Origin: Cumulibacter soli
Lineage (GTDB): Bacteria; Actinomycetota; Actinomycetes; Mycobacteriales; Antricoccaceae
Direction of reading: 5' to 3'
Length of the DNA: 64,000 nt
NCBI RefSeq assembly: GCF_004382795.1
Contig: NZ_SMSG01000004.1
Coordinates: forward strand, 124,001 to 188,000
The notes under the pieces: generated by a model
Database searches by the model: none
Told to the model about the DNA's origin: nothing
Seen by the model: the letters and a program-made list of their open reading frames with translations, nothing else
In this document: positions 45,331-58,381 of the stretch, in pieces
Numbering within the stretch: position 1 is the first letter of the stretch
Layout of the letters: the number at the start of each line of letters is the position of its first letter
Translations under genes and position numbers: made by a program

Positions 45331-46170
45331 CTAATCAGTTCGGTAGTTGCCCTTGAGTACCACGTCGCGATCAGCCGCTCGCCAAACCAAATAATCGCCG
45401 CCGTCTGAACGATCGCTCACCGCGATTTCTAGATCGTCGCCAGGAAAAACGGGGCCGACAAATCGCGCAGTAAATTCCTTCAACCTTCCGGCATCACCGT
45501 CCAGTAGACACGCGATAATTTCACGCACCACAAAACCCGAGGTACATCTACCATGCAGGATCGGTATGCGATGTCCCGCGGCGGCGGAGACTTTCGGGTC
45601 TGAATGCAACGGATTACGGCCCGCAGTCAGCCGATACAGCAGCGCCTGGTTCAGCGGGATCGAGAACTGCCAAACCTGCGCACCAGCCGGTACAGCGGCG
45701 GGACGTACGTCCCGACCGCCCTTGCGTGGCCGATCTCGAGTGAGGACCAATGTTCGGGCCGTCGTCCGGCATAACGGTCCGTTGTCGCCCACGGCAGTGT
45801 TCACCAGTTCAACCGTGAGCCCCCGGATATGCTCGCTTACTGCCCCCACCTTGTGTTCGACACGTACCTGCCCCGAGAGCGGAACCGTGCCGAACAGCTC
45901 GAGCGTCTCGGAGACCAACAACACGTCTTCCGGACGCACGCCGGCGGGCGCAAGCAACTCTGGGCCGCCGCCGCACAAGATGATGCCGTAAGTCGGGATT
46001 GCCTGCGTCTCAACACCGCTGCTGTTTTCCGTAGTGAACGCAAGCTCTGCGGTCGGATCGCCGCTACCTGCGCCGACGCCGAGCGCATACAGCAGAAGAG
46101 CATCGACGTCCCATCTACGGTTGGTGTCAGGGGGATCCAGTCGGCGCAGATCTCGTTCGGTAACACTCAT
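45331..46170 (-). CDS. MaoC/hydratase-2-like protein with altered active site
   Basis: A 279-residue double-hotdog protein similar to the hydratase part of peroxisomal multifunctional enzyme type 2 (DALLLYALGVGAGSGDP, ETQAIPTYGIILCGGG). The motif normally GDWNPLHID reads AGRNPLHSD, so the catalytic Asp is Gly while the His remains; PILHGRCTSGF follows where HGLCT is usual. The ATG at 46170 is chosen because longer starts run into the SBP gene. Last gene of the operon behind the 53254 leader. It may not be a classical hydratase. Confidence 0.8.
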   Translation of the reverse strand: MSVTERDLRRLDPPDTNRRWDVDALLLYALGVGAGSGDPTAELAFTTENSSGVETQAIPTYGIILCGGGPELLAPAGVRPEDVLLVSETLELFGTVPLSGQVRVEHKVGAVSEHIRGLTVELVNTAVGDNGPLCRTTARTLVLTRDRPRKGGRDVRPAAVPAGAQVWQFSIPLNQALLYRLTAGRNPLHSDPKVSAAAGHRIPILHGRCTSGFVVREIIACLLDGDAGRLKEFTARFVGPVFPGDDLEIAVSDRSDGGDYLVWRAADRDVVLKGNYRTD

Positions 46171-46195
46171 GTCGTCGTCACCCTCAGATCGCACC

Positions 46196-47284
46196 TCATG
46201 GTTTCCAATCAGTCGCTTCCTGCTTAATTGCATCGACATCAAAGGCATTCGCGTCGACCGACGGTGATAAGTCGACGATGTCCTCCGCCTTCAACTGTTC
46301 GTCGATGATTCCGTACTCGTACATGAAGTCGATGGACTTCTGCACTTCCTCAATACTCACGTCACCGATTACGCCGGAGTCATCGGTTTCAACGGCACCT
46401 TCGAAGCGCTCTTCAACTGTCGGGACGGTCGCATCAAGCGCCTCCTGGAGGTCGCCATCCGGCTTCTGTTCCGGATTCTCTGCCCAGTGGATCTGCAAGG
46501 CGGCGGACGGGTTGGTGGCCGCGAAGACGGCGCCTTTGTAATACCCCTGAAGGAACTCGACCACCGCGTCGCGATTGTCGGCCAGAAAGTCCTTCGTGGT
46601 CGCGATTCCGCTCAGGCCAGGAATTTCGTCGAGCGGGGTCGGCAGATCAACAAGTTCTTCACCCATCACAGATGCGACGACGGCGTTCGGTCCGGTGTAG
46701 GTGGCATACGCTACGACCGTGCCATCGTTGAGCGCCTGCGCCGCCTGGCTGCCCACGCCGGTGGGAATCCACTCGACGTCCTTATCCGGATCCACTCCCG
46801 AAGCGGCCAGGGCAGCGCGACCGAATAGATAAGACGCTGAGCTCAGCGACTGGACCCCAAGCTTCTTTCCTTTGAGATCAGCAATCTCAGTGATGTCACT
46901 ATCCGCTGGTACCGAAATTTGCCAGACGTTCTTGGGCTGCAGCGACACGATCCGTAGGTCTGGATTCGCGATGGCCGCTTGGTACATCGACGATGTACCG
47001 CCGTTGCTAATATCCGCCTTACCAGCCATGAGCAACTGCATCGACGCGGTCGCGCCTTGAGTCGGCTCGACCTCGACCGACATGCCCTCGTCCTCCCAGT
47101 ACCCTTGGGTGACCGGAACCGTGGTGTACGGCGCAGTCGAATCGATCAGCACCGGTGCACCGACAGCGAACGTAACGGAAGAACCGTCGCCCGACTCGTC
47201 CTCGGATGAACCGCACGCCGCTAACGCACTAATGAGAGTCATGGCAGCGACAACGCTGACCGAACGACGAAGACTGAGATTCAT
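46196..47284 (-). CDS. ABC substrate-binding lipoprotein (SsuA/TauA/NMT1 type), paralogue 2
   Basis: A 362-residue binding lipoprotein (signal ending LAACGSS, Cys about 24). The mature part starts VTFAVGAPVLIDSTAPYTTV and has DISNGGTSSMYQAAI, LKGKKLGVQSLSSASYLFGRAAL and ATYTGPNAVVASV, the pattern of nitrate/sulfonate/taurine/thiamine-precursor binding proteins. It is a close paralogue of the adjacent product of 47330-48427, by eye about two-thirds identical, pointing to tandem duplication. It serves the permease and ATPase encoded at 51421-53066. Confidence 0.87.
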   Translation of the reverse strand: MNLSLRRSVSVVAAMTLISALAACGSSEDESGDGSSVTFAVGAPVLIDSTAPYTTVPVTQGYWEDEGMSVEVEPTQGATASMQLLMAGKADISNGGTSSMYQAAIANPDLRIVSLQPKNVWQISVPADSDITEIADLKGKKLGVQSLSSASYLFGRAALAASGVDPDKDVEWIPTGVGSQAAQALNDGTVVAYATYTGPNAVVASVMGEELVDLPTPLDEIPGLSGIATTKDFLADNRDAVVEFLQGYYKGAVFAATNPSAALQIHWAENPEQKPDGDLQEALDATVPTVEERFEGAVETDDSGVIGDVSIEEVQKSIDFMYEYGIIDEQLKAEDIVDLSPSVDANAFDVDAIKQEATDWKP

Positions 47285-47329
47285 GCAGATTGGCCTTTCG
47301 CAGTAGTACCGGGGATTTCTCTGGCGCGC

Positions 47330-48427
47330 CTACGGCGTCCAGTTCTCGGCTTCCTCTTTAACCGCGTCGATATCGAAGTTGTTCGCATCGATCGACGGCG
47401 ACAAGTCGACAACATCCTCCGCATTCAACTGCTCGTCGATGACGCCGTTCTCGTACATGAAATCGATCGCCTCCTGGGCATCGTCCATGCTCACTGCGCC
47501 GAGATTACCGTCTGGACCCGGCTCCACCGGATACCCGAACCGCTCTTCGACTGTCGGTACCGTCGCGTCGATCGCCTCCTGCAGGTCACCGTCCGGTTTC
47601 TGCTCGGGGTACGCCTGCCAGTGAATCTGCAGCGCGGCTGCCGGATTCGCGTCGGCAAAAACCGCGCCCTTGTAGAAACCGCTGAGGAAACCGACAACCT
47701 CATCGCGGTTGCTCTCCAAGTAGTCTTTGGTCGTCGCCAAACCCGCCAAACCGGGTATCTCATCCAACGGCGTCGGCAGGTCGACTAACGGGTCATCGAG
47801 GAAGTTGTTCACGATGGCATTCGGTCCGCTGTACGTCGCATATGCATCGACCGTGCCCTCTTGAATCGCTTGTGCAGCCTGACTAGCGACCCCAATCGCG
47901 ATCCACTCGACGTCAGCATCAGGATCCAGTCCGGACGCCGACACCGCGGCACGTCCGAACAGGTACGACGCCGAACTCAGCGACTGGACCCCGATCTTCT
48001 TCCCTTTGAGATCGGCGATCTGATTTATCGAACTGCTGGAGGGAACATCGATTTTCCACTGGTTCGCCTTTTGCAGCGAGATCACGCGCACATCAGGATC
48101 CTCAACCGCCGCCTGATACATAGAGGACGTGCCGCCGTTACTAATCTCGGCTTGGCCTGCAAGCACCAGTTGCAGTGCAGCAGTCGCCCCCTGTGTCCCC
48201 TGCGGTTCGACACTCAGTCCTTCATCAGACCAGTAGCCCATCTCCAGCGGAACGCTCGAGTAGGGCGCTGTCGAATCGATCAGTACCGGCGCGCCGATCG
48301 CGAACGCGACCGGTGTGCCGCCGGATGTTTCGTCGTCAGAGGAGCCACATGCCGTGAGCGACGCAATGAGCGCGACACCTATGACAGCTCCTACGACGCG
48401 GTGGTTATGCCGAAACAATGACCTCAT
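47330..48427 (-). CDS. ABC substrate-binding lipoprotein (SsuA/TauA/NMT1 type), paralogue 1
   Basis: A 365-residue lipoprotein (LTACGSS, Cys about 27) with VAFAIGAPVLIDSTAPYSSV, EISNGGTSSMYQAAV, LKGKKIGVQSLSSASYLFG and TYSGPNAIVNNFL. It shares long stretches with its neighbour but differs around the ligand cleft, for example QKANQWKIDVPSSSS against QPKNVWQISVPADSD. It starts 8 nt after the crotonase stop, inside the operon. Two receptors for one permease suggest uptake of two related substrates. Confidence 0.87.
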   Translation of the reverse strand: MRSLFRHNHRVVGAVIGVALIASLTACGSSDDETSGGTPVAFAIGAPVLIDSTAPYSSVPLEMGYWSDEGLSVEPQGTQGATAALQLVLAGQAEISNGGTSSMYQAAVEDPDVRVISLQKANQWKIDVPSSSSINQIADLKGKKIGVQSLSSASYLFGRAAVSASGLDPDADVEWIAIGVASQAAQAIQEGTVDAYATYSGPNAIVNNFLDDPLVDLPTPLDEIPGLAGLATTKDYLESNRDEVVGFLSGFYKGAVFADANPAAALQIHWQAYPEQKPDGDLQEAIDATVPTVEERFGYPVEPGPDGNLGAVSMDDAQEAIDFMYENGVIDEQLNAEDVVDLSPSIDANNFDIDAVKEEAENWTP

Positions 48428-48435
48428 AATGTGGT

Positions 48436-49176
48436 CTACTTTCCCGTGAAATTGGGCTTGCGTTTCTGCGCGAAGGACTCGCGGCCCTCCAGCGCATCGG
48501 CGCTCTGGTTGGTGGCGAACAGCCGTGCGCGAGTGATTGCGGCTTGCTCTGCAGGCGACTGCGCGACCACTTGTTCGCCAAATCCTTTGATGGTCGCTAC
48601 AACGAGCGGTGCGCTCGCGGCGAGCGTGCGCGCCATCTGCAGCGCGACCTCCTCTTGCTGCCCATCAGGGACGACGCGGTTGACCATGCCGACCTCATAA
48701 GCGCGCTGCGCGCTCAATGGCTCCCCAAGTAACAGGAACTCAGCAGCAATCTTGGCGGGTACACGAGCGTAGGTGCCTGCGCACAGACCGCCGGTAATAC
48801 CCACGCGCGCCTCGGGATAGGAAAACACAGCCGACGACGACGCCACTGCAAGATCGGAGTGCTGCACCAGGATGTAGCCACCGCCGACGCAGTGGCCAGT
48901 GATCGCGGCGACGACGGGTTTGCTCAATGCGACGCCCACGTTCGGTACCGCCCGCGACATATCGTCTGGCGGGTTCGTCAGGTCGGCGCCGACGCAGAAT
49001 GCCCGATCCCCCGCGGCAGCCAGAACGGCGGCCCGATCATCGGATTCTTCGAACCGAATCCACACGGCGTGCAGTTCGCGAACGAGGTCGTCGGTCAACG
49101 CATTCATTTTCTCAGGCCGGTTGAGCCGAATCGTCGCGACTCGGTGTTCGGACTGGTACTCGACGAGGTCACCCAT
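48436..49176 (-). CDS. Enoyl-CoA hydratase/isomerase (crotonase) family protein with one catalytic Glu
   Basis: A 246-residue crotonase. The oxyanion-hole parts are AFCVGADLTN and ITGHCVGGGYILVQHSDLA. Compared gap-free with rat enoyl-CoA hydratase (GGGCELA...QPEILLG), the first catalytic Glu is Ile here (GGGYILV) and the second is kept (YPEARVG). One-Glu members of the family are isomerases, hydrolases, lyases or others rather than hydratases. The gene lies between the CoA-transferase pair and the binding-protein pair, 24 nt after the CoA-transferase gene. Confidence 0.85.
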   Translation of the reverse strand: MGDLVEYQSEHRVATIRLNRPEKMNALTDDLVRELHAVWIRFEESDDRAAVLAAAGDRAFCVGADLTNPPDDMSRAVPNVGVALSKPVVAAITGHCVGGGYILVQHSDLAVASSSAVFSYPEARVGITGGLCAGTYARVPAKIAAEFLLLGEPLSAQRAYEVGMVNRVVPDGQQEEVALQMARTLAASAPLVVATIKGFGEQVVAQSPAEQAAITRARLFATNQSADALEGRESFAQKRKPNFTGK

Positions 49177-49200
49177 GTGATGCCTTCTTTCGTGATCGAA

Positions 49201-50454
49201 TTAACGCGCTTCGCGGCAGATGCCGGAAGCGATGAGTTCATCGATGCACGGGTCATCGAGACCAAGCACCTCGGCGAGCACCTCGCGGGTGTCCTGCCCG
49301 TACAGGGGGGCGGGCGTTCTGCCGCCGACACGCTGCCCACCGATGACGGTCGGCAGGCTTTGGTACCGGTGCGTGCCGACCGCCGGGTGCTCCATTTCGA
49401 CCAGAACACCGTGCGAACGCAGGTGTTCATCCTCGACCAGCCGACGCGCGCCCGCCACCGGTGCTGCCGGGATGCCGTGCTGTTGTAGTGCTTGTGTCTC
49501 GGCATCGGTATCGGTGATGGACGAGGCGTACGTCTTCATCGCATCCGAGATCCGATCGCTATTCTGGCGGCGTTCGGGAAGCGTCCAGCTCGCTTCAAGA
49601 CCTCGCACCTCGACGCCCTGTTCGACGAGCCACGCGTGTAGCGCACGCCATTGCTCATCGGTTCGCGCGCTCAGGGCGATCCATTCGCCGTCGCCTGTCC
49701 GGTAGATGCCATGCGGCTCGGCACGCCGGTCCGCGTTGAGGTCCTCGACGATCGGCTCGCCCACGCTCTCTGCGAGGAAGTACTCCCCCAGCAACGGCAT
49801 CATGGCCTCTGACTGCGCGAGCATAATATGCGCACCTTCGCCCGTTTTGCGCGCTCGGATCAGCGCCGCGATGGCGGCAGAAGCCGCATTCAGCCCGCCG
49901 ACCGGGTCACCGATTGCGAAACCGGTCAGCAGCGGCGCAGTAGGGCTTCCGGTGAGGTTCGCCGAACCCGATTGGGCATCGAACTGAGCGCCGAACGCGG
50001 GTGCGGAGGCGAGCCGGCTGTCCGGCGGGTAGCCGGGCATTTCGACCAGCACGATTCGCGGATTGAGTTCGCTCAGCGCAGCGAAGCCCAGACCCATTCG
50101 CTCCAGCACGCCCGGACGGTAGTTCGCGATGACGAGGTCGGCGTGGCGAACCAACTGGTGTGCGATCTCGAGGCCGCGCGAGCTCTTGAGATCGAGGACG
50201 ACGTCCCGTTTATCGACATTTTGCGTGTTGAACCATGCGTTGCGGTTGATCGAATCTTCACCCGGTTCGAAGTCCGGGTAGCGCGAACGGATATCTCCCG
50301 CATTTCCGCGCAACGTGTCGGGCTTGGCGGGGCTCTCCAACTTGATCACCTCAGCGCCGAGTCCTGCCAAGACCCTGGTGCCCATCGGGCCGGACCACAC
50401 ATGGGTCAGATCCACGACGCGTATACCTCGCAGCGGCTGTGACATCTCAAGCAT
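49201..50454 (-). CDS. CaiB/BaiF CoA-transferase, catalytic member of a tandem pair
   Basis: A 417-residue family III CoA-transferase (IRVVDLTHVWSGPMGTRVLA, LGAEVIKLESP, NVDKRDVVLDL, NYRPGVLERMGLG). The catalytic Asp is about D183 in GFAIGDPVGG. The ATG at 50454 has GGGAGGG 5 nt upstream and overlaps the stop of the other CaiB-like gene by 8 nt; a longer frame to 50859 lies inside that gene. The pair may form a heteromeric CoA-transferase as reported for benzylsuccinate CoA-transferase BbsEF. Confidence 0.87.
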   Translation of the reverse strand: MLEMSQPLRGIRVVDLTHVWSGPMGTRVLAGLGAEVIKLESPAKPDTLRGNAGDIRSRYPDFEPGEDSINRNAWFNTQNVDKRDVVLDLKSSRGLEIAHQLVRHADLVIANYRPGVLERMGLGFAALSELNPRIVLVEMPGYPPDSRLASAPAFGAQFDAQSGSANLTGSPTAPLLTGFAIGDPVGGLNAASAAIAALIRARKTGEGAHIMLAQSEAMMPLLGEYFLAESVGEPIVEDLNADRRAEPHGIYRTGDGEWIALSARTDEQWRALHAWLVEQGVEVRGLEASWTLPERRQNSDRISDAMKTYASSITDTDAETQALQQHGIPAAPVAGARRLVEDEHLRSHGVLVEMEHPAVGTHRYQSLPTVIGGQRVGGRTPAPLYGQDTREVLAEVLGLDDPCIDELIASGICREAR

Positions 50455-51424
50455 CGCGTCCCTCCCGCGAGCGGTGCCCGTTGACGGTGTACGGGATCGC
50501 CGGCACCAAACCTTCGCCTGAGCGATCCAAAGTGAAGACACCGCGGCGCAACAGATCCTCGTCACGTAATGCTTCGGCGGCCGGACGAACGGGCGTGACA
50601 GCAACGTTGTGCGTCTTACCCTCGTTGCACGCCTGCTCAACGGTGCGCGCAGCCGCCCAATCATCAAAGACCTCGCCGAGCTCAGCGACGTGCCTGAACC
50701 GAGCGTCGTTCTCAACGAAACGTTCGTCGGTGAGCAGATCATCACGGCCGATCGTGGCCGCGATCGGATCCCATGCAAATCCGGCGTAGATGACCACGAA
50801 TCCGTCGCTGCATCTGCTGACGAACCGCGGCCCGGACTGCTCAAGTACGGATTCGTCACCGTTGTACTGGTACTGCGTCGTCGGGTACGGCAGCGTGGTT
50901 ACCACGGTCTCAAAATTCGAGACCTCCACCAACGGGGCCGCTCCAGTCGCACTCTCGGGATCGATGAGTCGCTGCAGGTACGACGCGGTCACGCCCTGGA
51001 ACAAGTGCTGCCCGGCCAAGTACTGGTAACGATCGCCGTATCCGTACGCCGGAACACCCTCGCGGCTCACCGTGTATCCGCTCGCACCACCTAGCGACGA
51101 GTAGACGAGTTCGTTACCAGTCCAGTCTGCGTAGGGCCCCGTCGGACGGAACGGGTACACGGTGCCGGTAATAACTTTGGCGGGAACGCTTTCCCAGTCA
51201 TAATCTGGATCAGCGATCACAATGTCGACGTGCACCGTGTCATCGGCATATGACTTACCCGAATCGAGAAAGTCAGTCGAGTAACGGTCTGAACTCTCCT
51301 GCGGTGTCCGGCAGAAGACCGTCGCACCATTGGCCGCAAGCATCCAGCCGCAGAAGCGGACGGCGGGTTCGTCCCCGGATTCGAGCACCGAGACCCCGTC
51401 GAGCAGCCCTTTGAACTCGCTCAT
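50447..51424 (-). CDS. Short, probably inactive CaiB/BaiF-family protein
   Basis: A 325-residue protein, about 80 residues shorter than normal family III CoA-transferases. The first part is reduced (LLDGVSVLESGDEPAVRFCGWMLAANGATVFCRTP). Family features remain in FRPTGPYADWTGNELVYSSLGG and RFVSRCSDGFVVIYAGF. At the site aligned to GDPVGG of the partner it reads GQHLFQG, so the catalytic Asp is replaced by His (about H140). This suggests a structural or binding subunit for the neighbouring CoA-transferase. It overlaps the permease gene by 4 nt. Confidence 0.8.
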   Translation of the reverse strand: MSEFKGLLDGVSVLESGDEPAVRFCGWMLAANGATVFCRTPQESSDRYSTDFLDSGKSYADDTVHVDIVIADPDYDWESVPAKVITGTVYPFRPTGPYADWTGNELVYSSLGGASGYTVSREGVPAYGYGDRYQYLAGQHLFQGVTASYLQRLIDPESATGAAPLVEVSNFETVVTTLPYPTTQYQYNGDESVLEQSGPRFVSRCSDGFVVIYAGFAWDPIAATIGRDDLLTDERFVENDARFRHVAELGEVFDDWAAARTVEQACNEGKTHNVAVTPVRPAAEALRDEDLLRRGVFTLDRSGEGLVPAIPYTVNGHRSREGRDA

Positions 51425-52266
51425 CTGGACTCCTCCCGAGGTTTAGGAACAACACTTTCCGGTAGCACCTTCTGGACGACCGCGATCAGCACGTGCAGGA
51501 GAGCGCCAAGTGCGGCTAGCACGATCAGCAACCCATACATCCCAGCGACGTCGCCGTACGCTTGACCTTGCGACAACAGATATCCGAGGCCCGACTGCGC
51601 ACCAACGAGTTCTGCAGCGACGGCGCCCAGCAGAGCGCCGATCAACGCCACGTCGAAGGACGGGAACACGTACGACATCGCGTTCGGCAACCTGAGGTAA
51701 CGCAGTTCCTGCCAGCGTGAGGCCTGCATCGCGCGCATCAAGTTCAATTCGTCGGGATCGACCGCCGACAGACCGGCGGTCGCGGCGGTCATCACTGGGA
51801 AGAAGGCGAGCATCGTCGCGATGATCACCTTCGGTGTCAGATCGTACCCGAACGCCACGATCAGCAGCGGCGCGATCGCGATCTTGGGCAAACTCATCAG
51901 CGCGATGACGTACGGATAAAACGCGGTACGGAGAATCTTCACGAACGCGAATAACGCGCCGACCACGAGCCCCAACAGTGATCCGATCACGAATCCGAGA
52001 CCGGTCTCGGTCAGCGTGACGCCGATATCGCCCCACCATCCGCCGTTATCATTCGATTCCAGCAGGCCGGATTGCAGCGACTCGAGGACATTGAGCGGCT
52101 CCGGCAACAGCAGCGGAGTGACCCATTCGTTTGCGGCGGCGAAATACCACAGCGCTATGAGCAGCACCAGCACGAGGAGTTGCAGGCCCAGGTTTCGCAG
52201 GCGGTTACGCCCTCGACCTTTGGTCGCCTTGGAGATGGTCTGCTCCTCGGTCGGGCCCGCGCTCAT
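51421..52266 (-). CDS. ABC transporter permease, SsuC/TauC type
   Basis: A 281-residue permease. After a charged N-terminal segment comes TM1 (LGLQLLVLVLLIALWYFAA). LGFVIGSLLGLVVGALFAF, PKIAIAPLLIVAFGYDLTPKVIIATMLAFFPV and the EAA-type coupling motif in MRAMQASRWQELRYLRLPNAMSYVF follow. This is the BPD_transp_1 pattern of nitrate/sulfonate/taurine permeases. It overlaps the ATPase gene by 4 nt and the CaiB-like gene by 4 nt. Confidence 0.9.
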   Translation of the reverse strand: MSAGPTEEQTISKATKGRGRNRLRNLGLQLLVLVLLIALWYFAAANEWVTPLLLPEPLNVLESLQSGLLESNDNGGWWGDIGVTLTETGLGFVIGSLLGLVVGALFAFVKILRTAFYPYVIALMSLPKIAIAPLLIVAFGYDLTPKVIIATMLAFFPVMTAATAGLSAVDPDELNLMRAMQASRWQELRYLRLPNAMSYVFPSFDVALIGALLGAVAAELVGAQSGLGYLLSQGQAYGDVAGMYGLLIVLAALGALLHVLIAVVQKVLPESVVPKPREESR

Positions 52267-53066
52267 GCCGATGCCTCATAGCTAGTGGGGTCGTTGTCGA
52301 CTGAGATTCCACCGGTGGGACCGATGAGCGCACGTAGCCGGCTGACATACTCGTAGAACTCGGGAGTTGAGCGCAACTCGAGGCCGCGCGGACGCGGCAA
52401 CTCGATCGGCACGATCTCGCGCAGCCGGCCCGGGCGGGCTTGCATCACCCCGACGCGGTCAGAGAGGTATACAGCCTCGGCGATGTTGTGCGTAATGAAC
52501 AGGACGGTCTTCGGGGTTTCGGTCCACAAACGCAGCAACTCATCGTTCAATGACTCGCGCGTGAACTCATCGAGTGCGGAGAAAGGCTCGTCCATCAGCA
52601 GGACATCGGGCTCGTTGACCAGCGCTCGCACGATGGCGGCTCGTTGCTGCATGCCGCCGGATAATTCGGCCGGGTAGCGCCTTCGGAAGTCTTTCAGGCC
52701 GGTTAGTTCAAGCAGATGACTTGCCATCTCGCGTCGTTCGTTGGTGACAGCGCCTCCGACCTTCGACGGCAGCAGCACATTCTTCTCGATCGTCAGCCAT
52801 CTCAGCAGTGTCGCCCGCTGAAACACGATCCCCGTGCTGCGGCGCGGTCCGCGAACGGTCTCGTCGGCGACGCGTAACTCGCCCGTGGTCGGCTCAAGCA
52901 AACCAGCCACCATGTTCAGGATTGTCGATTTTCCGCAGCCGGACGGGCCGACGAGACTAAAGAATTCGCCGTGCCTGAGCTCGAGGTCTGTCGTACTCAG
53001 CGCATGCACTGGGGGCGCGCCTGGACGCTCGTACGTCTTGCTGACCGAAGCAAGCTGAATTGTCAT
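52263..53066 (-). CDS. ABC transporter ATPase, SsuB/TauB type
   Basis: A 267-residue ATPase: Walker A GPSGCGKS, Q-loop GIVFQRATLLRWLTI, signature LSGGMQQRAAIVRAL, Walker B VLLMDEPFSALDEFTRE and switch LFITHNIAEAVYLSDR. This is the sulfonate/nitrate/taurine type. First gene of the operon, 187 nt after the leader peptide stop, with GAGGGA before its ATG. Confidence 0.92.
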   Translation of the reverse strand: MTIQLASVSKTYERPGAPPVHALSTTDLELRHGEFFSLVGPSGCGKSTILNMVAGLLEPTTGELRVADETVRGPRRSTGIVFQRATLLRWLTIEKNVLLPSKVGGAVTNERREMASHLLELTGLKDFRRRYPAELSGGMQQRAAIVRALVNEPDVLLMDEPFSALDEFTRESLNDELLRLWTETPKTVLFITHNIAEAVYLSDRVGVMQARPGRLREIVPIELPRPRGLELRSTPEFYEYVSRLRALIGPTGGISVDNDPTSYEASA

Positions 53067-53214
53067 GGAGTTCCCTCTCAGGATCCTGCTGGTGATACGC
53101 CGCGGCGGGAGGTGACCAAACGCGAGATGGCGATCGCTACAACGAAACTGCTCGAACTACGCGCCGCTACGAACACCCTCAAATCGGGGATCGGTGGACC
53201 TAGGTCGATACGCC

Positions 53215-53229
53215 ACGGTCAATGACCGT
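53215..53229. promoter_or_regulatory. Palindrome ACGGTCA-A-TGACCGT in the leader region
   Basis: Perfect 7-nt arms with a single central base, 25 nt downstream of the leader stop on the minus strand. It may be a protein binding site or part of RNA folding before the ATPase gene. Its function is unknown. Confidence 0.4.
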
Positions 53230-53253
53230 CAGCGCCGAGCCGCGCGAACGAAT

Positions 53254-53331
53254 CTAGTAGCGACAGAGGCTACTAGCCGTCATCATCAGATCAATAGGGA
53301 AACGGCGAACCGCGAAGAAAGACTCCGACAC
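53254..53331 (-). CDS. Cysteine-containing leader peptide 1 (attenuator of the 53066-45331 operon)
   Basis: A 25-codon ORF from GTG at 53331 (AAGGGG 7 nt upstream) to TAG at 53254-53256; an in-frame ATG at 53337 is also possible. The peptide contains FFAVRRFPIDLMMTAS then SLCRY and stop. The same pattern occurs in leader 2 (58092-58163). The codons around Leu-Cys-Arg form a hairpin with perfect 8-nt arms CTAGTAGC/GCTACTAG (53254-53261, 53269-53276) and the Cys codon at the loop. It resembles RR..DL..LC-type leader peptides known before actinobacterial sulfur genes. Expected role: ribosome behaviour at the Cys codon sets expression of the transporter operon. No protein function is implied. Confidence 0.8.
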   Translation of the reverse strand: MSESFFAVRRFPIDLMMTASSLCRY

Positions 53332-53559
53332 GCTCATCCCCCTTCTGCCGATGTACACGTTTACCGAGATCGTCGGCCTATTCATCCCGGGCCACCTGCG
53401 CACCGCAGGCTCGCCCTCCAGTAAACCGGGTCCGCACGCTGGAACTCAGGACCACGGTCAACAACCATAGGCCAGCACAAACCTTGCGACTAGAGGCGCA
53501 TGCGCTTCACATTCGTGTCGTCGATCACGCGCATTTAACCCAACCAGAGACCCGCAGTT
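53332..53559. other. 228-nt intergenic region upstream of leader 1
   Basis: It must hold the leader-1 promoter (minus) and the end of the upstream SsuABC operon. I see no strong terminator stem and no gene; short open frames on the plus strand have no supporting features. Confidence 0.5.
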
Positions 53560-54375
53560 CTACGCGCCGAGCGATTCTTCGCGGCGTTGTCGCGGCGTAC
53601 GCAAGATCCACCGCGCAACCACATCGATCGCCAACCCCAGGACGCCGATCACCACGATCAGCGCTGTGATGTGGTGGTAGGCGAGCTGATCCTTCGCGTT
53701 GAGAATCTGGTATCCGAGCCCGCTGGTCACACCAAGCATCTCGGCGGGGACAAGCACGACCCAGCCCAACGCGACAGCGGACCGGATACCGCTGAGCGCA
53801 TGTGGCCGGACGGTCGGCAGCACCACGGTCCGCAACGCCTCGATCCTGCTCGCGCCGAGCGCACGCGCGACCGCACGATGGCCGGGGTCGACGGACCGTA
53901 CGCCGGCCGAGGTAGCGAGCAGAATCGGCCACACCGTGGTCAGCGCGACGAGCACGATCACCGGTAGGTCACCGATGCCGACCAGCACGATCACCAGCGG
54001 CGCCCAGGACAGCGGCGACACCATCCGCAGGAAACCGACCGCTGGCTGCGTCGCTCGCTCCAGCCAACCCACCGTGCCTACCGTCAATCCAGCCACGACG
54101 CCGATCACTACGGCAATCAGCAGACCGACGACCAGCCGCATTACCGAGGCCGACGCATCGTCAAGCAGTACTCCGGACTCCCACAGTTCCGACAACCCGG
54201 CCCAGGTACGCGCAGGTGAGAAGTCACGCACCAGTGGTCGATTGCCAAAGATGACCTCGGTCAGCAGGTACCAGATCGCGACGGCACCGATGATCCCCGC
54301 GATCGGGACCAGCAGACTTTCGGTACGGCGAGCCGTCGTGGACGCGACGCGCGGCGCGTCAGTCACCGTGCTCAC
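53560..54375 (-). CDS. ABC transporter permease, SsuC/TauC type
   Basis: A 271-residue permease with TM1 LLVPIAGIIGAVAIWYLL, GLLIAVVIGVVAGLTVG and VSPLSWAPLVIVLVGIGDLPVIVLVALTTVWPI. The coupling motif is VARALGASRIEALRTVVLPTVRPH, then SAVALGWVVLVPAEMLG. It clearly belongs to the sulfonate/nitrate/taurine type. It is the last gene of the operon behind leader 2 and overlaps the binding-protein gene by 4 nt. Confidence 0.9.
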   Translation of the reverse strand: MSTVTDAPRVASTTARRTESLLVPIAGIIGAVAIWYLLTEVIFGNRPLVRDFSPARTWAGLSELWESGVLLDDASASVMRLVVGLLIAVVIGVVAGLTVGTVGWLERATQPAVGFLRMVSPLSWAPLVIVLVGIGDLPVIVLVALTTVWPILLATSAGVRSVDPGHRAVARALGASRIEALRTVVLPTVRPHALSGIRSAVALGWVVLVPAEMLGVTSGLGYQILNAKDQLAYHHITALIVVIGVLGLAIDVVARWILRTPRQRREESLGA

Positions 54376-55550
54376 GGCTCGATCAACTCCTGCCGATCCG
54401 TCTTGCCCGAAGGCAATGCGTCCCCGCCGAGCGCGGCACGCGCGAACCTGTCATCGACCAGCCCGCCGTGCACAGCGTCACCGTCGGCGTCATCCAAGAA
54501 AGCCGTATCGCCGTCGATCGTCGTGGTGCGCATCTGTTCGACCAGTGCTTCGGTGTAACTGGCCATCGGGAAAGCGCTGAAGCCCAGGCGTTCGCCATGC
54601 CACTGCTCGTGCGTGGTGACATCGGCGTACGCCGCGGCATCACGAGTGAACACCTCACCTACCGCGGGCGTCGGCTGCGGGAGATACCCGCCCTCGGTCA
54701 GCAACGCGCCCATCTGCGGCCGATTCTCGTCGATCCACTGCTGCGCCTGCACGATCGCGGTGGTCAGCCCCTGCACCACATCGGGATCCTCGTTGATCAA
54801 CTCTTCGCGCACGACGATCGCGCAGCATGCGTGCTCTTTCCACACATCACCTAGAAAGCGCTCCACCCGGCCGATCCCCTGCTTCTCCGCGACAACACTG
54901 AACGGGTCGGCAACGACGTACCCACCGACCGTGCCGCCGGCGAGTGCGGCGACCATATCCGCCGGCGCCATGACGGCCAGCTGCACCGTTCCCTCGGATA
55001 CCGATGGCTGCTGACGTATCACCGGGGTCAGCCCTTCGGCGGCGAACATCCGCTGTAGCAGGATGTTGTGCACCGACCACCAATACGGGATCGCTACCGT
55101 GGTCCCCGCCAGCTGCGACAGATCACCGATATCGTTCGATACCGTCAACGCAGATCCGTTCACATGCCCCCAGGCGATCACCTTCAACGGCGTCTTCTTC
55201 GCCAACTTCAACTGAATCGCCAGCGGCATGAGCAAATGGACCGCGTCGACCTCGCCGATAGCGAAAGCCTGAGCGAGGGACTCCCAGCTACGAAAAAGCA
55301 CCGGCTCCGGAGCGTCGATTCCTTGCTTGGCAAGGAACCCGCCGTCGTACGCCGTCAACAGCGCCGCCGCGTCGGTGACCGGTAGATAACCGATGCGGAT
55401 GGCGCGCTTCGAACTGCCGGCGAGCGCGGGTGCCACGGCGTTCCAGGCGCCATAGCCGGCGAGCCCGCCAACGACCCCGGCGGCGGCCACGCGACTACCC
55501 AGCACCAGTGCGCGCCGCCGCGTCAGCAGGCGCCCGCGCAGCTCAGGCAT
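54372..55550 (-). CDS. ABC substrate-binding protein, NrtA/SsuA type, with Tat-like signal
   Basis: A 392-residue binding protein from the ATG at 55550, which overlaps the ATPase stop by 8 nt. The N-terminus LLTRRRALVLGSRVAAAG is a twin-arginine-like signal with Arg at about 11-13, followed by a hydrophobic stretch and ALAGSS. The mature part IRIGYLPVTDAAALLTAYDGGFLAKQG, FAIGEVDAVHLLMPLAIQL and AGTTVAIPYWWSVHNIL is the NrtA/CmpA-like form. A folded, perhaps cofactor- or metal-bound receptor exported by Tat is possible. The frame extends to 55703, but that part lies within the ATPase gene. Confidence 0.88.
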   Translation of the reverse strand: MPELRGRLLTRRRALVLGSRVAAAGVVGGLAGYGAWNAVAPALAGSSKRAIRIGYLPVTDAAALLTAYDGGFLAKQGIDAPEPVLFRSWESLAQAFAIGEVDAVHLLMPLAIQLKLAKKTPLKVIAWGHVNGSALTVSNDIGDLSQLAGTTVAIPYWWSVHNILLQRMFAAEGLTPVIRQQPSVSEGTVQLAVMAPADMVAALAGGTVGGYVVADPFSVVAEKQGIGRVERFLGDVWKEHACCAIVVREELINEDPDVVQGLTTAIVQAQQWIDENRPQMGALLTEGGYLPQPTPAVGEVFTRDAAAYADVTTHEQWHGERLGFSAFPMASYTEALVEQMRTTTIDGDTAFLDDADGDAVHGGLVDDRFARAALGGDALPSGKTDRQELIEP

Positions 55551-56268
55551 CGATGAGCACCTGCTCACGATCCCCCACACCAAAGGCATCGCGAATCTCG
55601 GCGCGCTGACGGTCGCGTTGGGCCTTATCCACACTCCAACGCCGCTCGATTGCACCGTCCGACAACAGCACGATCTCGTCGGCGAGCAGCAGCGCCTCAT
55701 CAATATCGTGCGTGACGATCACCGAGGTGAGTCCCTCATTGCGGCTCTCGACGCGAATCCACTCCTGCAGCGAGGATCGCGTCGCCGGATCAAGCGCGCT
55801 GAACGGCTCATCGAGCAACAGCAAGTCAGGCTGCACGGCCAGCGCGCGCCCGAACGAGACGCGCTGCGCTTGTCCGCCAGAAAGCTGGTCGGGATACCGA
55901 TCACGCAGATCACCGATCCCGAGCAGTTCCAGCAACTCATCAACCCTCGCCCGGTCGACGCCGTGGTTGCGGCGATACCCGAGTCCGAGAGCCACGTTTT
56001 GTCGCACGGTTAACCAGTCGAACAACAGCGGGCGCTGGTACACGACCGCGCGGCGATAGTCGCCGTGCTCACTGGTGAGCTCGACGGCGCCCGCATCGGG
56101 CGCCAGCTCGCCGTCCAGCACCCGAAGCAGGGTCGACTTTCCGGCGCCACTGCGCCCCAACACCACGGTCTGGGACCCCTGCTGAAGGTCGAGGCTGAGC
56201 CCGCGCAGCACCTGCTCGCCGCCGAGCACCAGGTGAACGTCTACGAGTCGAGCGACGCTAGCTCCCAT
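55543..56268 (-). CDS. ABC transporter ATPase, SsuB type
   Basis: A 241-residue ATPase: Walker A GRSGAGKSTLL, Q-loop VVYQRPLLFDWLTV, signature LSGGQAQRVSFGRAL, Walker B LLLLDEPFSALDPATR, switch VIVTHDIDEALLLADE. The ATG at 56268 has GGAAGGA 8 nt upstream and overlaps the flavoprotein gene by 28 nt. In-frame sequence up to 56478 lies inside that gene and is not used. Confidence 0.9.
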   Translation of the reverse strand: MGASVARLVDVHLVLGGEQVLRGLSLDLQQGSQTVVLGRSGAGKSTLLRVLDGELAPDAGAVELTSEHGDYRRAVVYQRPLLFDWLTVRQNVALGLGYRRNHGVDRARVDELLELLGIGDLRDRYPDQLSGGQAQRVSFGRALAVQPDLLLLDEPFSALDPATRSSLQEWIRVESRNEGLTSVIVTHDIDEALLLADEIVLLSDGAIERRWSVDKAQRDRQRAEIRDAFGVGDREQVLIDA

Positions 56269-57335
56269 CGAAGCTGTCCTTCCGAGGGCGATTGCACGGG
56301 TAAGAACGCGGCTTCGCGGAATCGGCGCGATGTGCCGCTCGCAGCGACGTATCCGCGCCCACCGGCGAGGGTCGCCTCGAGCCGAGTCGCCTCGCCAGCG
56401 ACAACGCTCGCATCCAGACGCAACTGCACGAAGTCGCGCGGCGTCGCAGAGCCCAGCGCTGTGCTGAGTTGCCGCCACCGCTGCTCGATTTCGGCGACCT
56501 GCGCGCAGACCGCTTCGTATCGCGGCACCAGTCCCTCGTTGCCGGCGCGTTCGATGAGGACCTCGGCCTCACGCGCGGAGCGCCGGGAGATTCCGACGCA
56601 GAACGCCGACTGCAGCACCATGAAGGTCGGTCGGTACGCCCGCGCCGAATCGGCGAACGTCCAACTGAGCACCGCATCGGCCGGAATACGCACTCCACTC
56701 AGACTGACCGACCCGGACGCGGTGGCGTTCAACGCAAGCAGGCCCTCGACGTACCGCACGTCGACGCCGAGATCACCGACGCGGACCCACAGCACCACCC
56801 GACGGCCGTCGTCCAATGCAACAGGCAACACGACGACCGCGCCCGGGACCAGATTCGACGCCCAACGGATCTGCCCGTCGATCACGATCTCGGCGCCCTC
56901 GACGCGTCCGGTGATTCCGAGCGGTTCGATACCCGCCAGCGCCTTCATACCGGCAGCCATCGCGCTCGAGCCGATGATCTCGCCCGATCGCAACCCTGCC
57001 AGCGTGGCGTCGTTCAGCGCGTTGCGCTGCCCACGGGCAAAGAAATCGAGCACCATCCGATGCGCCCACAGACTGAACGCACTACTCATGCACTCCTCGG
57101 CCAGCAGCGCAATCAGCTCAGCGCTACCGGTCACGTCCGCCTCGGCAGACAACGGGTCGGCGATCGAATCGATGCCGAGATCCAGCAAGCCACGCCCGCC
57201 CAGGTCAGCGAGCCGCTCAGTCGTCTGAGCGTCTCCGCTGTCAATCCGGGCCACCGATTCGGCGAGCACCGCGCGCAGGTCGTCAGCGGCGTGACGCACC
57301 CGCGCGAGGCCCTCCGACGTCGTCGTCACGCTCAT
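56241..57335 (-). CDS. Acyl-CoA-dehydrogenase-fold flavoprotein linked to sulfonate transport
   Basis: A 364-residue member of the acyl-CoA dehydrogenase fold. Recognisable parts are LAEECMSSAFSLWAHRMV (helical N-domain), GSSAMAAGMKALAG, VDGQIRWASNLVPGAVVVLP-like beta domain, SGVRIPADAVLSW, and the C-terminal GGRGYVAASGTSRRFREAAFLPVQSPSEG. The usual FEGT(S/N)xxQ Glu is absent. It lies in an operon with SsuABC-like genes and a sulfur-type leader. Flavin monooxygenases of this fold (DszC/SfnC-like) cleave or oxidise organosulfur compounds, so a monooxygenase role is a fair guess. Confidence 0.75.
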   Translation of the reverse strand: MSVTTTSEGLARVRHAADDLRAVLAESVARIDSGDAQTTERLADLGGRGLLDLGIDSIADPLSAEADVTGSAELIALLAEECMSSAFSLWAHRMVLDFFARGQRNALNDATLAGLRSGEIIGSSAMAAGMKALAGIEPLGITGRVEGAEIVIDGQIRWASNLVPGAVVVLPVALDDGRRVVLWVRVGDLGVDVRYVEGLLALNATASGSVSLSGVRIPADAVLSWTFADSARAYRPTFMVLQSAFCVGISRRSAREAEVLIERAGNEGLVPRYEAVCAQVAEIEQRWRQLSTALGSATPRDFVQLRLDASVVAGEATRLEATLAGGRGYVAASGTSRRFREAAFLPVQSPSEGQLRWELASLDS

Positions 57336-57889
57336 GGCGCACTCGGCGCAGGAACGTTCGAGTTCAATGCGTGCAGCCGGTCGATGGGCGTGGAGACGAT
57401 CTCACGGGCGCGTACCACGGCGTCCGCGTCCGGCGCGTTGTAGAGGCACAAGCACTTATCGACGTCCTCCCGCACGTAGGTACGCAGGAACGAAACCTCC
57501 GGGATCTCGGCGTACAACGGCGACTTCTCCTTCTTGCGCGCCAGGTAGGTGTCCATGTCGATGCCGTCCGGGATATCCCATTCGACGAGGTAACCGGCCT
57601 CGGGGCGGCTCGCCTTGAGGTCGGCGAGATCGGCTCCGACCAGCCGGACCGAATCGGGCCCGGTGACCTCAGTGGTGCCGTCGATGCTCAGCACCTCAGC
57701 ACCGAGCGAGGTGAGGTCCGGCGCCTCGAAAACGATGAACACCCGGTCGGCGCTCGCGGTCACCTCGGCTTCGATCAATTCGGCATTAGCGGCTGCCGCG
57801 CGCACCGCGGCCTGCTCGATGATCTTGCGAGCCGCGTCGGGCGTCTGGGTAGCGGGGACGATCTCGACGAGGGCGAGCGAGCTGGGCAT
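57332..57889 (-). CDS. DUF4242 domain protein
   Basis: A 185-residue protein from the ATG at 57889 with AAGGAG 6 nt upstream; in-frame sequence to 58003 is rejected. The second half, EIPEVSFLRTYVREDVDKCLCLYNAPD with ADAVVRAREIVSTPIDRL, matches DUF4242, small ferredoxin-fold proteins of unknown function. The first half has a similar alternating pattern (MPSSLALVEIVPATQTPDAA), so it may be an internal duplication. It is the first structural gene after leader 2, overlapping the flavoprotein gene by 4 nt. It has a Cys pair, C-L-C. Confidence 0.75.
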   Translation of the reverse strand: MPSSLALVEIVPATQTPDAARKIIEQAAVRAAAANAELIEAEVTASADRVFIVFEAPDLTSLGAEVLSIDGTTEVTGPDSVRLVGADLADLKASRPEAGYLVEWDIPDGIDMDTYLARKKEKSPLYAEIPEVSFLRTYVREDVDKCLCLYNAPDADAVVRAREIVSTPIDRLHALNSNVPAPSAP

Positions 57890-57921
57890 GGACTTCTCCT
57901 TGGATAGAGGGGGTGTTCTTT

Positions 57922-58112
57922 GGCTAGCGGTGTTACGTGGCGGCGTTGAGGTATCGCAGACAGCGACCTCGAAGGCCTGTTGAGGTGGCAGTACTACGCG
58001 CAATAACGGTGATTGGACCGGTCCGGGGACGCGACCTATCGCGGGCGGTGCGCTGCAGAAATGGTGCCGAGGGGCTAGGCAGCCTCAACGGCTAGCGACA
58101 GAGGTCGCTAGC
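57922..58112 (-). promoter_or_regulatory. Leader-2 attenuation region with mutually exclusive pairings
   Basis: The leader end forms a 9-nt-arm hairpin GCTAGCGAC/GTCGCTAGC (58091-58099, 58104-58112). Just past the stop, GTTGAGG (minus strand, 58083-58089) can pair with CCTCAAC copies corresponding to plus-strand GTTGAGG at 57979-57985 and 57945-57951. A further copy of GGCTAGCG lies at 57922-57929, close to the ribosome site of the DUF4242 gene, and can pair with the leader hairpin arm. These alternatives fit attenuation. Confidence 0.5.
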
Positions 58113-58163
58113 GGTGAGCAGGAGATCGACGGTGAAGCGGCGTACGGCGACGAAAGACTTCAT
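58092..58163 (-). CDS. Cysteine-containing leader peptide 2 (attenuator of the 57889-53560 operon)
   Basis: A 23-codon ORF from ATG at 58163 to TAG at 58092-58094. The peptide begins MKSFVAVRRFTVDL and ends with TASDLCR. It aligns with leader 1 at S-F, AVRRF, DL, TAS and LCR, with no gap across the core. GGGGAG is 11 nt before the ATG. The Leu-Cys-Arg-stop codons are inside a 9-nt-arm hairpin with a 4-nt loop. It is followed 202 nt later by the DUF4242 gene. Cys as the last-but-one residue suits a sensor of charged Cys-tRNA. Confidence 0.82.
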   Translation of the reverse strand: MKSFVAVRRFTVDLLLTASDLCR

Positions 58164-58381
58164 GTCGACGGCCACTCCCCTCGCTCGGCGGGGTTATCGC
58201 TGGACCCCGAAAGACGTACCAAATAGTGTATGCGGACAGCCAAGACAGCGACAAGAATCGTTCCTTGAATCACCCCAACCGTGAGCCCGAACCGAAAACC
58301 GAATACGATTCGGTCTTAGGGCGCGAAGCGCGGCGCGTGCGCCCGTCACACCAAACGAGTCCAGACTCAGGAGCCAATTCC
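58164..58381. other. Divergent promoter region between leader 2 and the FadE pair
   Basis: This 218-nt stretch must hold promoters for both directions. I see no convincing operator palindrome. In-frame sequence upstream of 58382 is open but lacks acyl-CoA dehydrogenase similarity. Confidence 0.5.

What the first reader, a model, noticed from the sequence alone, without database searches (positions are those of the whole stretch)
53254..58163. Two related Cys-containing leader ORFs control two adjacent SsuABC-type operons
Seen: minus-strand ORFs of 25 and 23 codons at 53254-53331 and 58092-58163 share S-F, AVRRF, DL, TAS, LCR and a stop within one codon of the end. Each is the first open frame before an operon with a sulfonate/nitrate-type ABC transporter, 187-202 nt upstream of the first gene. 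Known: actinobacteria use short RR..DL..LC or Cys-rich leader peptides before sulfur genes. Inferred: both operons respond to cysteine supply and the transporters carry organosulfur compounds, not nitrate.
Basis: partly seen in the sequence, partly recalled or inferred. Interest (0 to 1): 0.82.

Follow-up and report, generated by a model that had tools for sequence, protein, structure and literature searches.

The report
Cysteine leader peptides before sulfur operons
Two very short genes in front of two likely sulfur-uptake operons look like cysteine sensors, and in some related bacteria such sensors sit directly behind a second RNA sensor, for the sulfur compound SAM, which suggests a two-signal switch.

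Summary
The two minus-strand mini-ORFs are real and very probably translated leader peptides: 15 of 22 aligned codons encode the same residue, 6 of these 15 with silent changes. Leader 2 is conserved at the same place, before an intact operon 2, in both congeners held. In two other families this operon has leaders of the known actinobacterial consensus (NF042934) there. The window peptides are divergent single-Cys relatives, not matched by that family's model. Best model: cysteine-responsive attenuation of organosulfur uptake.

Directly upstream of leader 1 lies the genome's best SAM-IV riboswitch match (29.2 bits, under the gathering score, core changed: decayed or altered). In congener G001 an intact SAM-IV (110 bits) sits 24 nt before the operon-2 leader. 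SAM-IV plus leader recurs: 10 of 40 sampled SAM-IV loci (7 of 14 in one genus, 3 of 26 elsewhere), but 0 of the 30 best-scoring ones; reverse-strand control 0 of 101. My paper searches found no description of the pair. Proposed logic: SAM gates leader translation; the leader then reads cysteine.

Cysteine response, termination step and cargo are inferred; there are no expression data. New variant of a known kind.

The parts
53352..53453 (-). SAM-IV-like riboswitch element, decayed or altered
   Evidence: RF00634, 29.2 bits (gathering score 38); E 0.0057 for the whole genome, best of the 150 candidates scored out of 742 of the first look; departs at several nearly invariant core positions
53254..53331 (-). 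Leader peptide 1, VSESFFAVRRFPIDLMMTASSLCRY* (alternative in-frame ATG at 53337)
   Evidence: 10.0 bits with a profile built from other leaders
53254..53276 (-). Hairpin CTAGTAGC-CTCTGTC-GCTACTAG over the end of leader 1, Cys and stop codons included
   Evidence: 1 of 3000 synonymous recodings of the last 8 codons is as stable
53067..53253 (-). Spacer from leader 1 to gene 1 (187 nt), not C-rich
52263..53066 (-). Operon 1: ABC ATPase (Sao/Ntr/Tau type)
51421..52266 (-). Operon 1: ABC permease
50447..51424 (-). Operon 1: CoA-transferase family III
49201..50517 (-). Operon 1: CoA-transferase family III (start uncertain)
48436..49176 (-). Operon 1: enoyl-CoA hydratase/isomerase
47330..48427 (-). 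Operon 1: NMT1/SsuA-type binding protein
46196..47284 (-). Operon 1: second NMT1/SsuA-type binding protein
45331..46248 (-). Operon 1: MaoC-like hydratase (start uncertain)
58092..58163 (-). Leader peptide 2, MKSFVAVRRFTVDLLLTASDLCR*
   Evidence: conserved before the same operon in G001 and G002; leaders of the known consensus there in G155 and G288
58091..58112 (-). Hairpin GCTAGCGAC-CTCT-GTCGCTAGC over the Cys and stop codons of leader 2
57890..58091 (-). C-rich, G-poor spacer from leader 2 to gene 1 (202 nt); candidate Rho loading region
57332..57889 (-). Operon 2: SCO4226-like protein
56241..57335 (-). Operon 2: SfnB-like oxidoreductase, weak match
   Evidence: no Pfam hit at 1e-5
55543..56310 (-). 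Operon 2: ABC ATPase (start uncertain)
54372..55547 (-). Operon 2: SsuA/NMT1-type binding protein (start uncertain)
53560..54375 (-). Operon 2: ABC permease

Best explanation
Both mini-ORFs are translated leader peptides that attenuate the operon behind them in response to cysteine supply; they are divergent single-Cys relatives of the actinobacterial NF042934 leaders. When Cys-tRNA is short the ribosome stalls at the UGU codon, with one or two codons left before the stop, and so keeps the following RNA from being closed or attacked: the operon is read. When cysteine is plentiful the ribosome finishes and leaves, the hairpin at the leader's end can form, and the operon is shut, by Rho acting on the untranslated spacer or by occlusion of the first gene's ribosome site. 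In the form seen in congener G001 a SAM-IV riboswitch stands just before the leader, so that SAM would gate translation of the leader and the leader would then read cysteine: transport on only when both are low. In this genome leader 2 has no SAM-IV element and leader 1 has only a decayed or altered one. Shown: the ORFs, the conservation of leader 2, the positions, the SAM-IV elements and their recurrence before such leaders. Inferred: translation, stalling, the cysteine and SAM responses, the shut-off step and the organosulfur cargo.
For: Residues kept with silent codon changes. A leader at the same site in G001 (VATTFYAVRRFTIDYGRLRTTCS*) and G002 (VPTSFYAVRRFTVDHVMTDSALCR*), before an operon conserved in all five genes (oxidoreductase 66-68%). 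In G155 and G288, of other families, the same operon is preceded by ...VRRRHVDLRRVASACCR* and ...LTRRLHVDLVRVAGAACCHIPR* (36.6 and 27.3 bits with my own profile; the curated model was not run on them). NF042934 occurs in 141 of 150 genomes of the order at E<=0.01, 127 over its cut-off, and includes LTKRRAVDLCRVAGCCCC-type leaders; a review says that M. smegmatis leaders with contiguous Cys codons act by attenuation that depends on cysteine availability (PMC9031893, passages). The own genome has one such leader before a cysE-like gene (gene read by eye). Intact SAM-IV, 110.1 bits, 24 nt before the G001 leader. SAM-IV plus leader in 10 of 40 sampled loci; reverse-strand control 0 of 101 entries. 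Genes behind ten such pairs read mostly as organosulfur uptake or use. Spacers after leaders have more C than G in 24 of 25 cases.
Against: One Cys codon each, a weak sensor compared with poly-Cys leaders. Neither peptide is found with the NF042934 model; with my own profile leader 2 scores 3.6 bits, inside the range of control ORFs (best control 4.6), so it rests on synteny and on the congeners. The spacer of leader 1 is not C-rich (C 0.31, G 0.31), that of the G001 leader hardly (0.37, 0.36). No intrinsic-terminator-like site on the minus strand in either spacer. The stop-codon hairpin is not more stable than chance in G001, G002 or the own cysE leader and is not a family trait (mean z +1.15 over 40 leaders). 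Operon 1 in G003 has no adjacent leader that my scan could see. None of the 30 best-scoring SAM-IV loci has a leader. No expression or ribosome data.
Confidence: 0.72

Rival explanations
1. The leaders act mainly through the nascent peptide (an arrest peptide with the RR..DL motif that senses cysteine or another sulfur compound), not through slow decoding of Cys codons.
For: One Cys codon only, yet RR..DL..C is conserved well beyond the Cys codon across the order.
Against: Many family members carry Cys runs, and very short poly-Cys ORFs such as MSRCCC* stand behind SAM-IV elements (read by eye), which fits codon starvation.
Confidence: 0.2
2. The short ORFs are not translated; the conserved stretch is a structured RNA element (hairpin over the stop codon).
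For: Both window copies have perfect hairpins of 8 and 9 base pairs that few synonymous recodings reach.
Against: Codon differences are silent where residues agree; the hairpin is missing in G001, G002 and the wider family while the reading frame is kept.
Confidence: 0.06
3. Shut-off is translational (occlusion of the first gene's ribosome site) rather than Rho-dependent termination.
For: A paper on M. tuberculosis counts the M. smegmatis cysteine leaders as translation attenuation and describes SD occlusion in such systems (PMC13236596, passages). The spacer of leader 1 is not C-rich.
Against: Long and mostly C-rich spacers (24 of 25 with C above G) favour Rho; folds of the two 5' regions gave no signal over shuffles (z 0.31 and -1.13).
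Confidence: 0.4
4. The SAM-IV-like element before leader 1 is a dead remnant or a chance match, so that only cysteine matters in this genome.
For: 29.2 bits, under the gathering score; core positions changed; no SAM-IV over the cut-off among the candidates scored in this genome.
Against: Genome-wide E 0.0057, and it lies exactly where G001 and others have an intact one before a leader.
Confidence: 0.5

Closest known systems
NF042934 cis_reg_atten (NCBIfam leader-peptide family)
   Same: Short actinobacterial ORF, RR-x-x-DL, Cys next to the stop, before sulfur genes; leaders of this consensus stand at the same operon in two other families
   Different: F for the usual H or A after RR, the usual R after DL-x missing, one Cys only; not found with the curated model
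Cysteine-responsive poly-Cys leaderless sORFs of M. smegmatis (Canestrari et al. 2020; paper not held; known here from citing passages and from recall)
   Same: Cys codons in a short leader ORF before sulfur operons
   Different: No Cys run here; transcription starts are unknown, but the SAM-IV element before the G001 leader implies that the leader there is not leaderless
cys-operon leader peptides of Seliverstov et al. 2005 (PMC1262725; abstract and cysteine section read)
   Same: Cys codons near the stop, no conserved terminator hairpin, Rho suggested
   Different: Runs of Cys codons before cys operons; the section read does not mention a SAM-IV element
SAM-IV riboswitch (RF00634)
   Same: The element before leader 1 aligns over the full model; intact copy before the G001 leader
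   Different: The window copy is under the gathering score with core changes; the ORF under control would be a leader peptide, not a gene
SAM-I riboswitch that also senses uncharged initiator tRNA in Xanthomonas (PMC7270179, start of abstract in a search listing only)
   Same: Two related signals read by one 5' region
   Different: There one riboswitch does both; here two modules in series, aptamer and leader peptide

Membership tests
NF042934 cis_reg_atten | Curated cut-off 27 bits for the family model | tested here: not met
   No match in hmmscan and not among the own-genome hits at E<=10; no score was reported, and filters may drop so short a peptide. Own profile: 10.0 and 3.6 bits
NF042934 cis_reg_atten | RR-x-x-DL, then Cys at the end of a mini-ORF | tested here: met
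NF042934 cis_reg_atten | Same operon elsewhere is preceded by a leader of the family consensus | tested here: met
   Operon 2 in G155 and G288 (own profile, curated model not run on them); not seen for operon 1 in G003
Poly-Cys cysteine attenuators | Run of Cys codons | tested here: not met
   One Cys each
Poly-Cys cysteine attenuators | Expression responds to cysteine | not testable with these tools
   No expression data
SAM-IV riboswitch | Gathering score 38 bits (window element) | tested here: not met
   29.2 bits
SAM-IV riboswitch | Core stretches GGTCA.GAG, GGCAACC, GGGGTGC as in the relatives (window element) | tested here: not met
   The window reads GGTCCTGAG, GGCGAGCC, GGTGGC
SAM-IV riboswitch | Gathering score met by the element before the G001 leader | tested here: met
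   110.1 bits
Aliphatic sulfonate (Ssu) transporter | Cut-off of the binding-protein family TIGR01728 (163.5 bits) | tested here: not met
   90.6, 75.1 and 85.4 bits

The most novel reading that the evidence does not exclude
Some actinobacteria use a two-stage RNA switch for sulfur scavenging: a SAM-IV riboswitch whose regulated ORF is itself a cysteine-sensing leader peptide, so that uptake of cystine, sulfonates and other organosulfur turns on only when both SAM and cysteine are low, while methionine-pathway genes tend to keep SAM-IV alone. The window shows the module coming apart: one leader without the riboswitch, and one with a riboswitch that is decayed or has changed its ligand.
Probability: 0.5. 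Interest if true: 0.75.

Novelty: new variant of a known kind. Interest (0 to 1): 0.6.

Why it matters
Leader peptides and riboswitches are usually treated as separate ways to sense a nutrient. A recurrent series of the two, each reading a different end product of one pathway, would be a natural two-input gate. It would also explain SAM-IV elements that stand well away from the first gene, and would help to name sulfur-uptake operons whose cargo is unknown. It is directly testable with reporters in harmless soil actinobacteria.

Tried and rejected
AVRRF core as a genome-wide marker: rejected, 22 DNA matches, none of the 20 outside the window a leader. A hairpin over the stop codon as a family trait: rejected. 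Intrinsic terminators in the spacers: none on the minus strand; the scan's five sites are elsewhere or on the plus strand. Folds of the two whole 5' regions: no signal over shuffles. The one genome-contig scan (80 loci kept) gave relatives at 42-56% identity, and my leader pattern found nothing convincing in them. SAM-IV with leader among the 30 best-scoring SAM-IV loci: 0 of 30; told because it limits the claim. Rows dropped or doubled: L251 (I fetched only the aptamer) and L150 (a wrong stretch); 12 of 52 leader loci (L150 among them) gave no leader to my pattern; L245-L250 repeat loci of the family set; sets A and C share L227 and L235, so the 101 entries are 99 loci. In the family set the leaders of L263, L266 and L268 (regular expression) and the poly-Cys ones of L272-L274 (by eye) stay under 10 bits with my profile. 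Two further loci were not scanned for families (L256 no gene found, L258 short).
Full report
Observation. Of 22 aligned codons 15 encode the same residue, and 6 of these 15 differ silently, as expected if the peptide, not only the DNA, is kept.

Conservation. A profile of the two peptides was run over 397 genomes of the order. Outside the own genome the only strong match is G002, same genus (39.1 bits, 4.5e-9). The other congener, G001, matches weakly (E 0.0046, behind G266 at 8.4e-4 and G077 at 0.00278). Both congener matches lie just upstream of operon 2, which is conserved in all five genes in both: G001 reads VATTFYAVRRFTIDYGRLRTTCS* and G002 VPTSFYAVRRFTVDHVMTDSALCR*. The oxidoreductase passes E 1e-60 in 6 of 397 genomes. 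Of the three outside the genus, G155 and G288, of two other families, have the whole operon, and there the first gene is preceded by ...VRRRHVDLRRVASACCR* and ...LTRRLHVDLVRVAGAACCHIPR*; G324 has only the oxidoreductase in the 11 kb fetched. Operon 1 is found in G003 (ATPase and permease 72-73%), and my pattern scan saw no leader beside it, so leader 1 has no support from synteny.

Family. NCBIfam holds a 19-position model for such leaders, NF042934 cis_reg_atten; I recalled the accession and the tool confirmed it. It is found in 141 of 150 genomes of the order at E<=0.01, 127 over the cut-off, and in 0 of 14 control genomes. Its members include LTKRRAVDLCRVAGCCCC-type leaders and single-Cys forms such as LTSRRHVDLLRTSSATCR*. 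The own genome has one over the cut-off before a gene that I read as cysE (serine acetyltransferase) and one at 24.1 bits before a gene that I read as an ABC binding protein. The window leaders were not found with this model. With a profile built from 27 distinct leaders, leader 1 scores 10.0 bits, above every control ORF (best control 4.6), and leader 2 scores 3.6, not above them. I therefore call them divergent relatives and do not file them as members.

The second element. An Rfam scan placed SAM-IV (RF00634) at 53352-53453(-), ending 20 nt before the GTG of leader 1 (14 nt before the alternative ATG). The score, 29.2 bits, is under the gathering score of 38, but it is the best match in the genome (E 0.0057; 150 of 742 first-look candidates were scored). 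Aligned with eleven SAM-IV elements from G001-G004 it departs at otherwise nearly invariant positions, so it is decayed or altered. In G001 an intact SAM-IV (110.1 bits) lies 24 nt before the operon-2 leader. No SAM-IV was reported before the operon-2 leader in the window or in G002.

Recurrence. SAM-IV passes its cut-off in 125 of 200 genomes of the order. Coordinates set against one search showed a leader behind SAM-IV in G042, G065, G072 and G086 (loci L241-L244). I then scored short ORFs within 400 nt after SAM-IV elements with the leader profile, counting loci over 10 bits. Set A, the 30 best-scoring loci: 0 of 30. Set B, 40 further loci from the listed part, chosen without sight of what follows them but not at random: 10 of 40, namely 7 of 14 in the genus g5 already known to have pairs and 3 of 26 elsewhere (families f15 and f16). 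Set D, 13 other loci: 8, of which 4 had been picked for the coincidence (4 of the other 9). Set C, the 18 elements over the cut-off in the own family: 1. On the reverse strand of all 101 entries (99 loci) no ORF passed 5 bits. In set C three more divergent leaders (L263, L266, L268, regular expression) and three short poly-Cys ORFs (L272-L274, by eye) follow SAM-IV, 7 of 18 in all.

Genes behind the pairs. The first genes behind ten pairs were scanned (gaps 95 to 438 nt). Four hit the cystine ABC permease best, all below its cut-off. The others hit SsuA (below cut-off), SsuE (over it), a DmoA/NtaA-type monooxygenase (below), MetQ (below), an MFS carrier and an aminotransferase/MocR-type protein. 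So eight of ten read as organosulfur uptake or use. Of the ten hits of set B, seven gave a readable first gene: by eye five cystine-type ABC parts, one SsuA-like protein and one GNAT-like protein.

Mechanism. In these leaders the Cys codon stands next to the stop; I infer stalling there when Cys-tRNA is short. The 150 nt after the leader have more C than G in 24 of 25 loci (mean 0.41 against 0.275). Two limits apply: short spacers run into the gene, and the only background used was tiles of the window's minus strand. No intrinsic-terminator-like site lies on the minus strand in either spacer. This fits Rho-dependent attenuation, which Seliverstov et al. raised, as a weak prediction, for cys leaders (PMC1262725). 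Leader 1 is the exception, so occlusion of the ribosome site remains open. The aptamer ends 20 nt (window) and 24 nt (G001) before the leader, so it most simply controls leader translation: SAM would switch the leader off, and cysteine would switch the operon off behind it.

Hairpins. Both window leaders carry perfect hairpins over the Cys and stop codons. For the last 8 codons 0.03% (leader 1) and 0.87% (leader 2) of 3000 synonymous recodings are as stable; an earlier run of 2000 gave 0 and 0.3%. G001, G002 and the own cysE leader do not differ from chance, nor do 40 other leaders, whose mean z is +1.15. I treat the hairpins as a local feature of unknown weight.

Literature. Nine searches were made. 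Those aimed at SAM riboswitches together with leader peptides or short ORFs listed no paper that by title, start of abstract or the passages I opened describes the pairing. Two of the four papers (PMC3890552, PMC2704369) were not opened. The library lacks most subscription papers, Canestrari et al. 2020 included, so this is no proof of novelty.

Noticed in passing
G000 whole genome: No SAM-IV element over the gathering score was found in this genome (150 of 742 candidates scored), although its four relatives of the family have 3 to 6 each over it; how its methionine genes are controlled is open.
   Followed up: no
window 58298-58314: The palindrome ACCGAATCGTATTCGGT between leader 2 and the plus-strand acyl-CoA dehydrogenase gene is also present at the same place in G001 and G002; it looks like an operator of a TetR-type repressor (recalled, not tested).
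   Followed up: no
L109 1453-1551 (G000:C11) and L110 1387-1569 (G000:C1): Two further leaders in the same genome: FSRRHVDLLRVSSALCC* before a cysE-like gene and LTKRRCIDLCRVSACRCRAI* before an ABC binding protein (genes read by eye).
   Followed up: partly
L258 (G121:C26): Two leader-like ORFs in series behind one SAM-IV element...VRRRVIDLHRVDSSICSG* and MTPTPVTRRHIDLLRTASACC*.
   Followed up: no
L273 (G003:C6), L272 (G001:C1), L274 (G004:C1): Very short poly-Cys ORFs close behind SAM-IV (read by eye), the smallest MSRCCC*, before an MFS carrier (L273), a MetQ-type lipoprotein (L272) and a lipoprotein not scanned (L274).
   Followed up: partly
L205 6102-6169, L206 7330-7397: Rfam ASdes (a TB sRNA family) matches over its gathering score near operon 2 in both congeners.
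   Followed up: no
window 45331-53066: Operon 1 joins an SsuABC-type transporter to two family III CoA-transferases, an enoyl-CoA hydratase and a MaoC-like hydratase, which would fit uptake and CoA-dependent breakdown of a sulfur-containing acid (cargo is a guess).
   Followed up: partly
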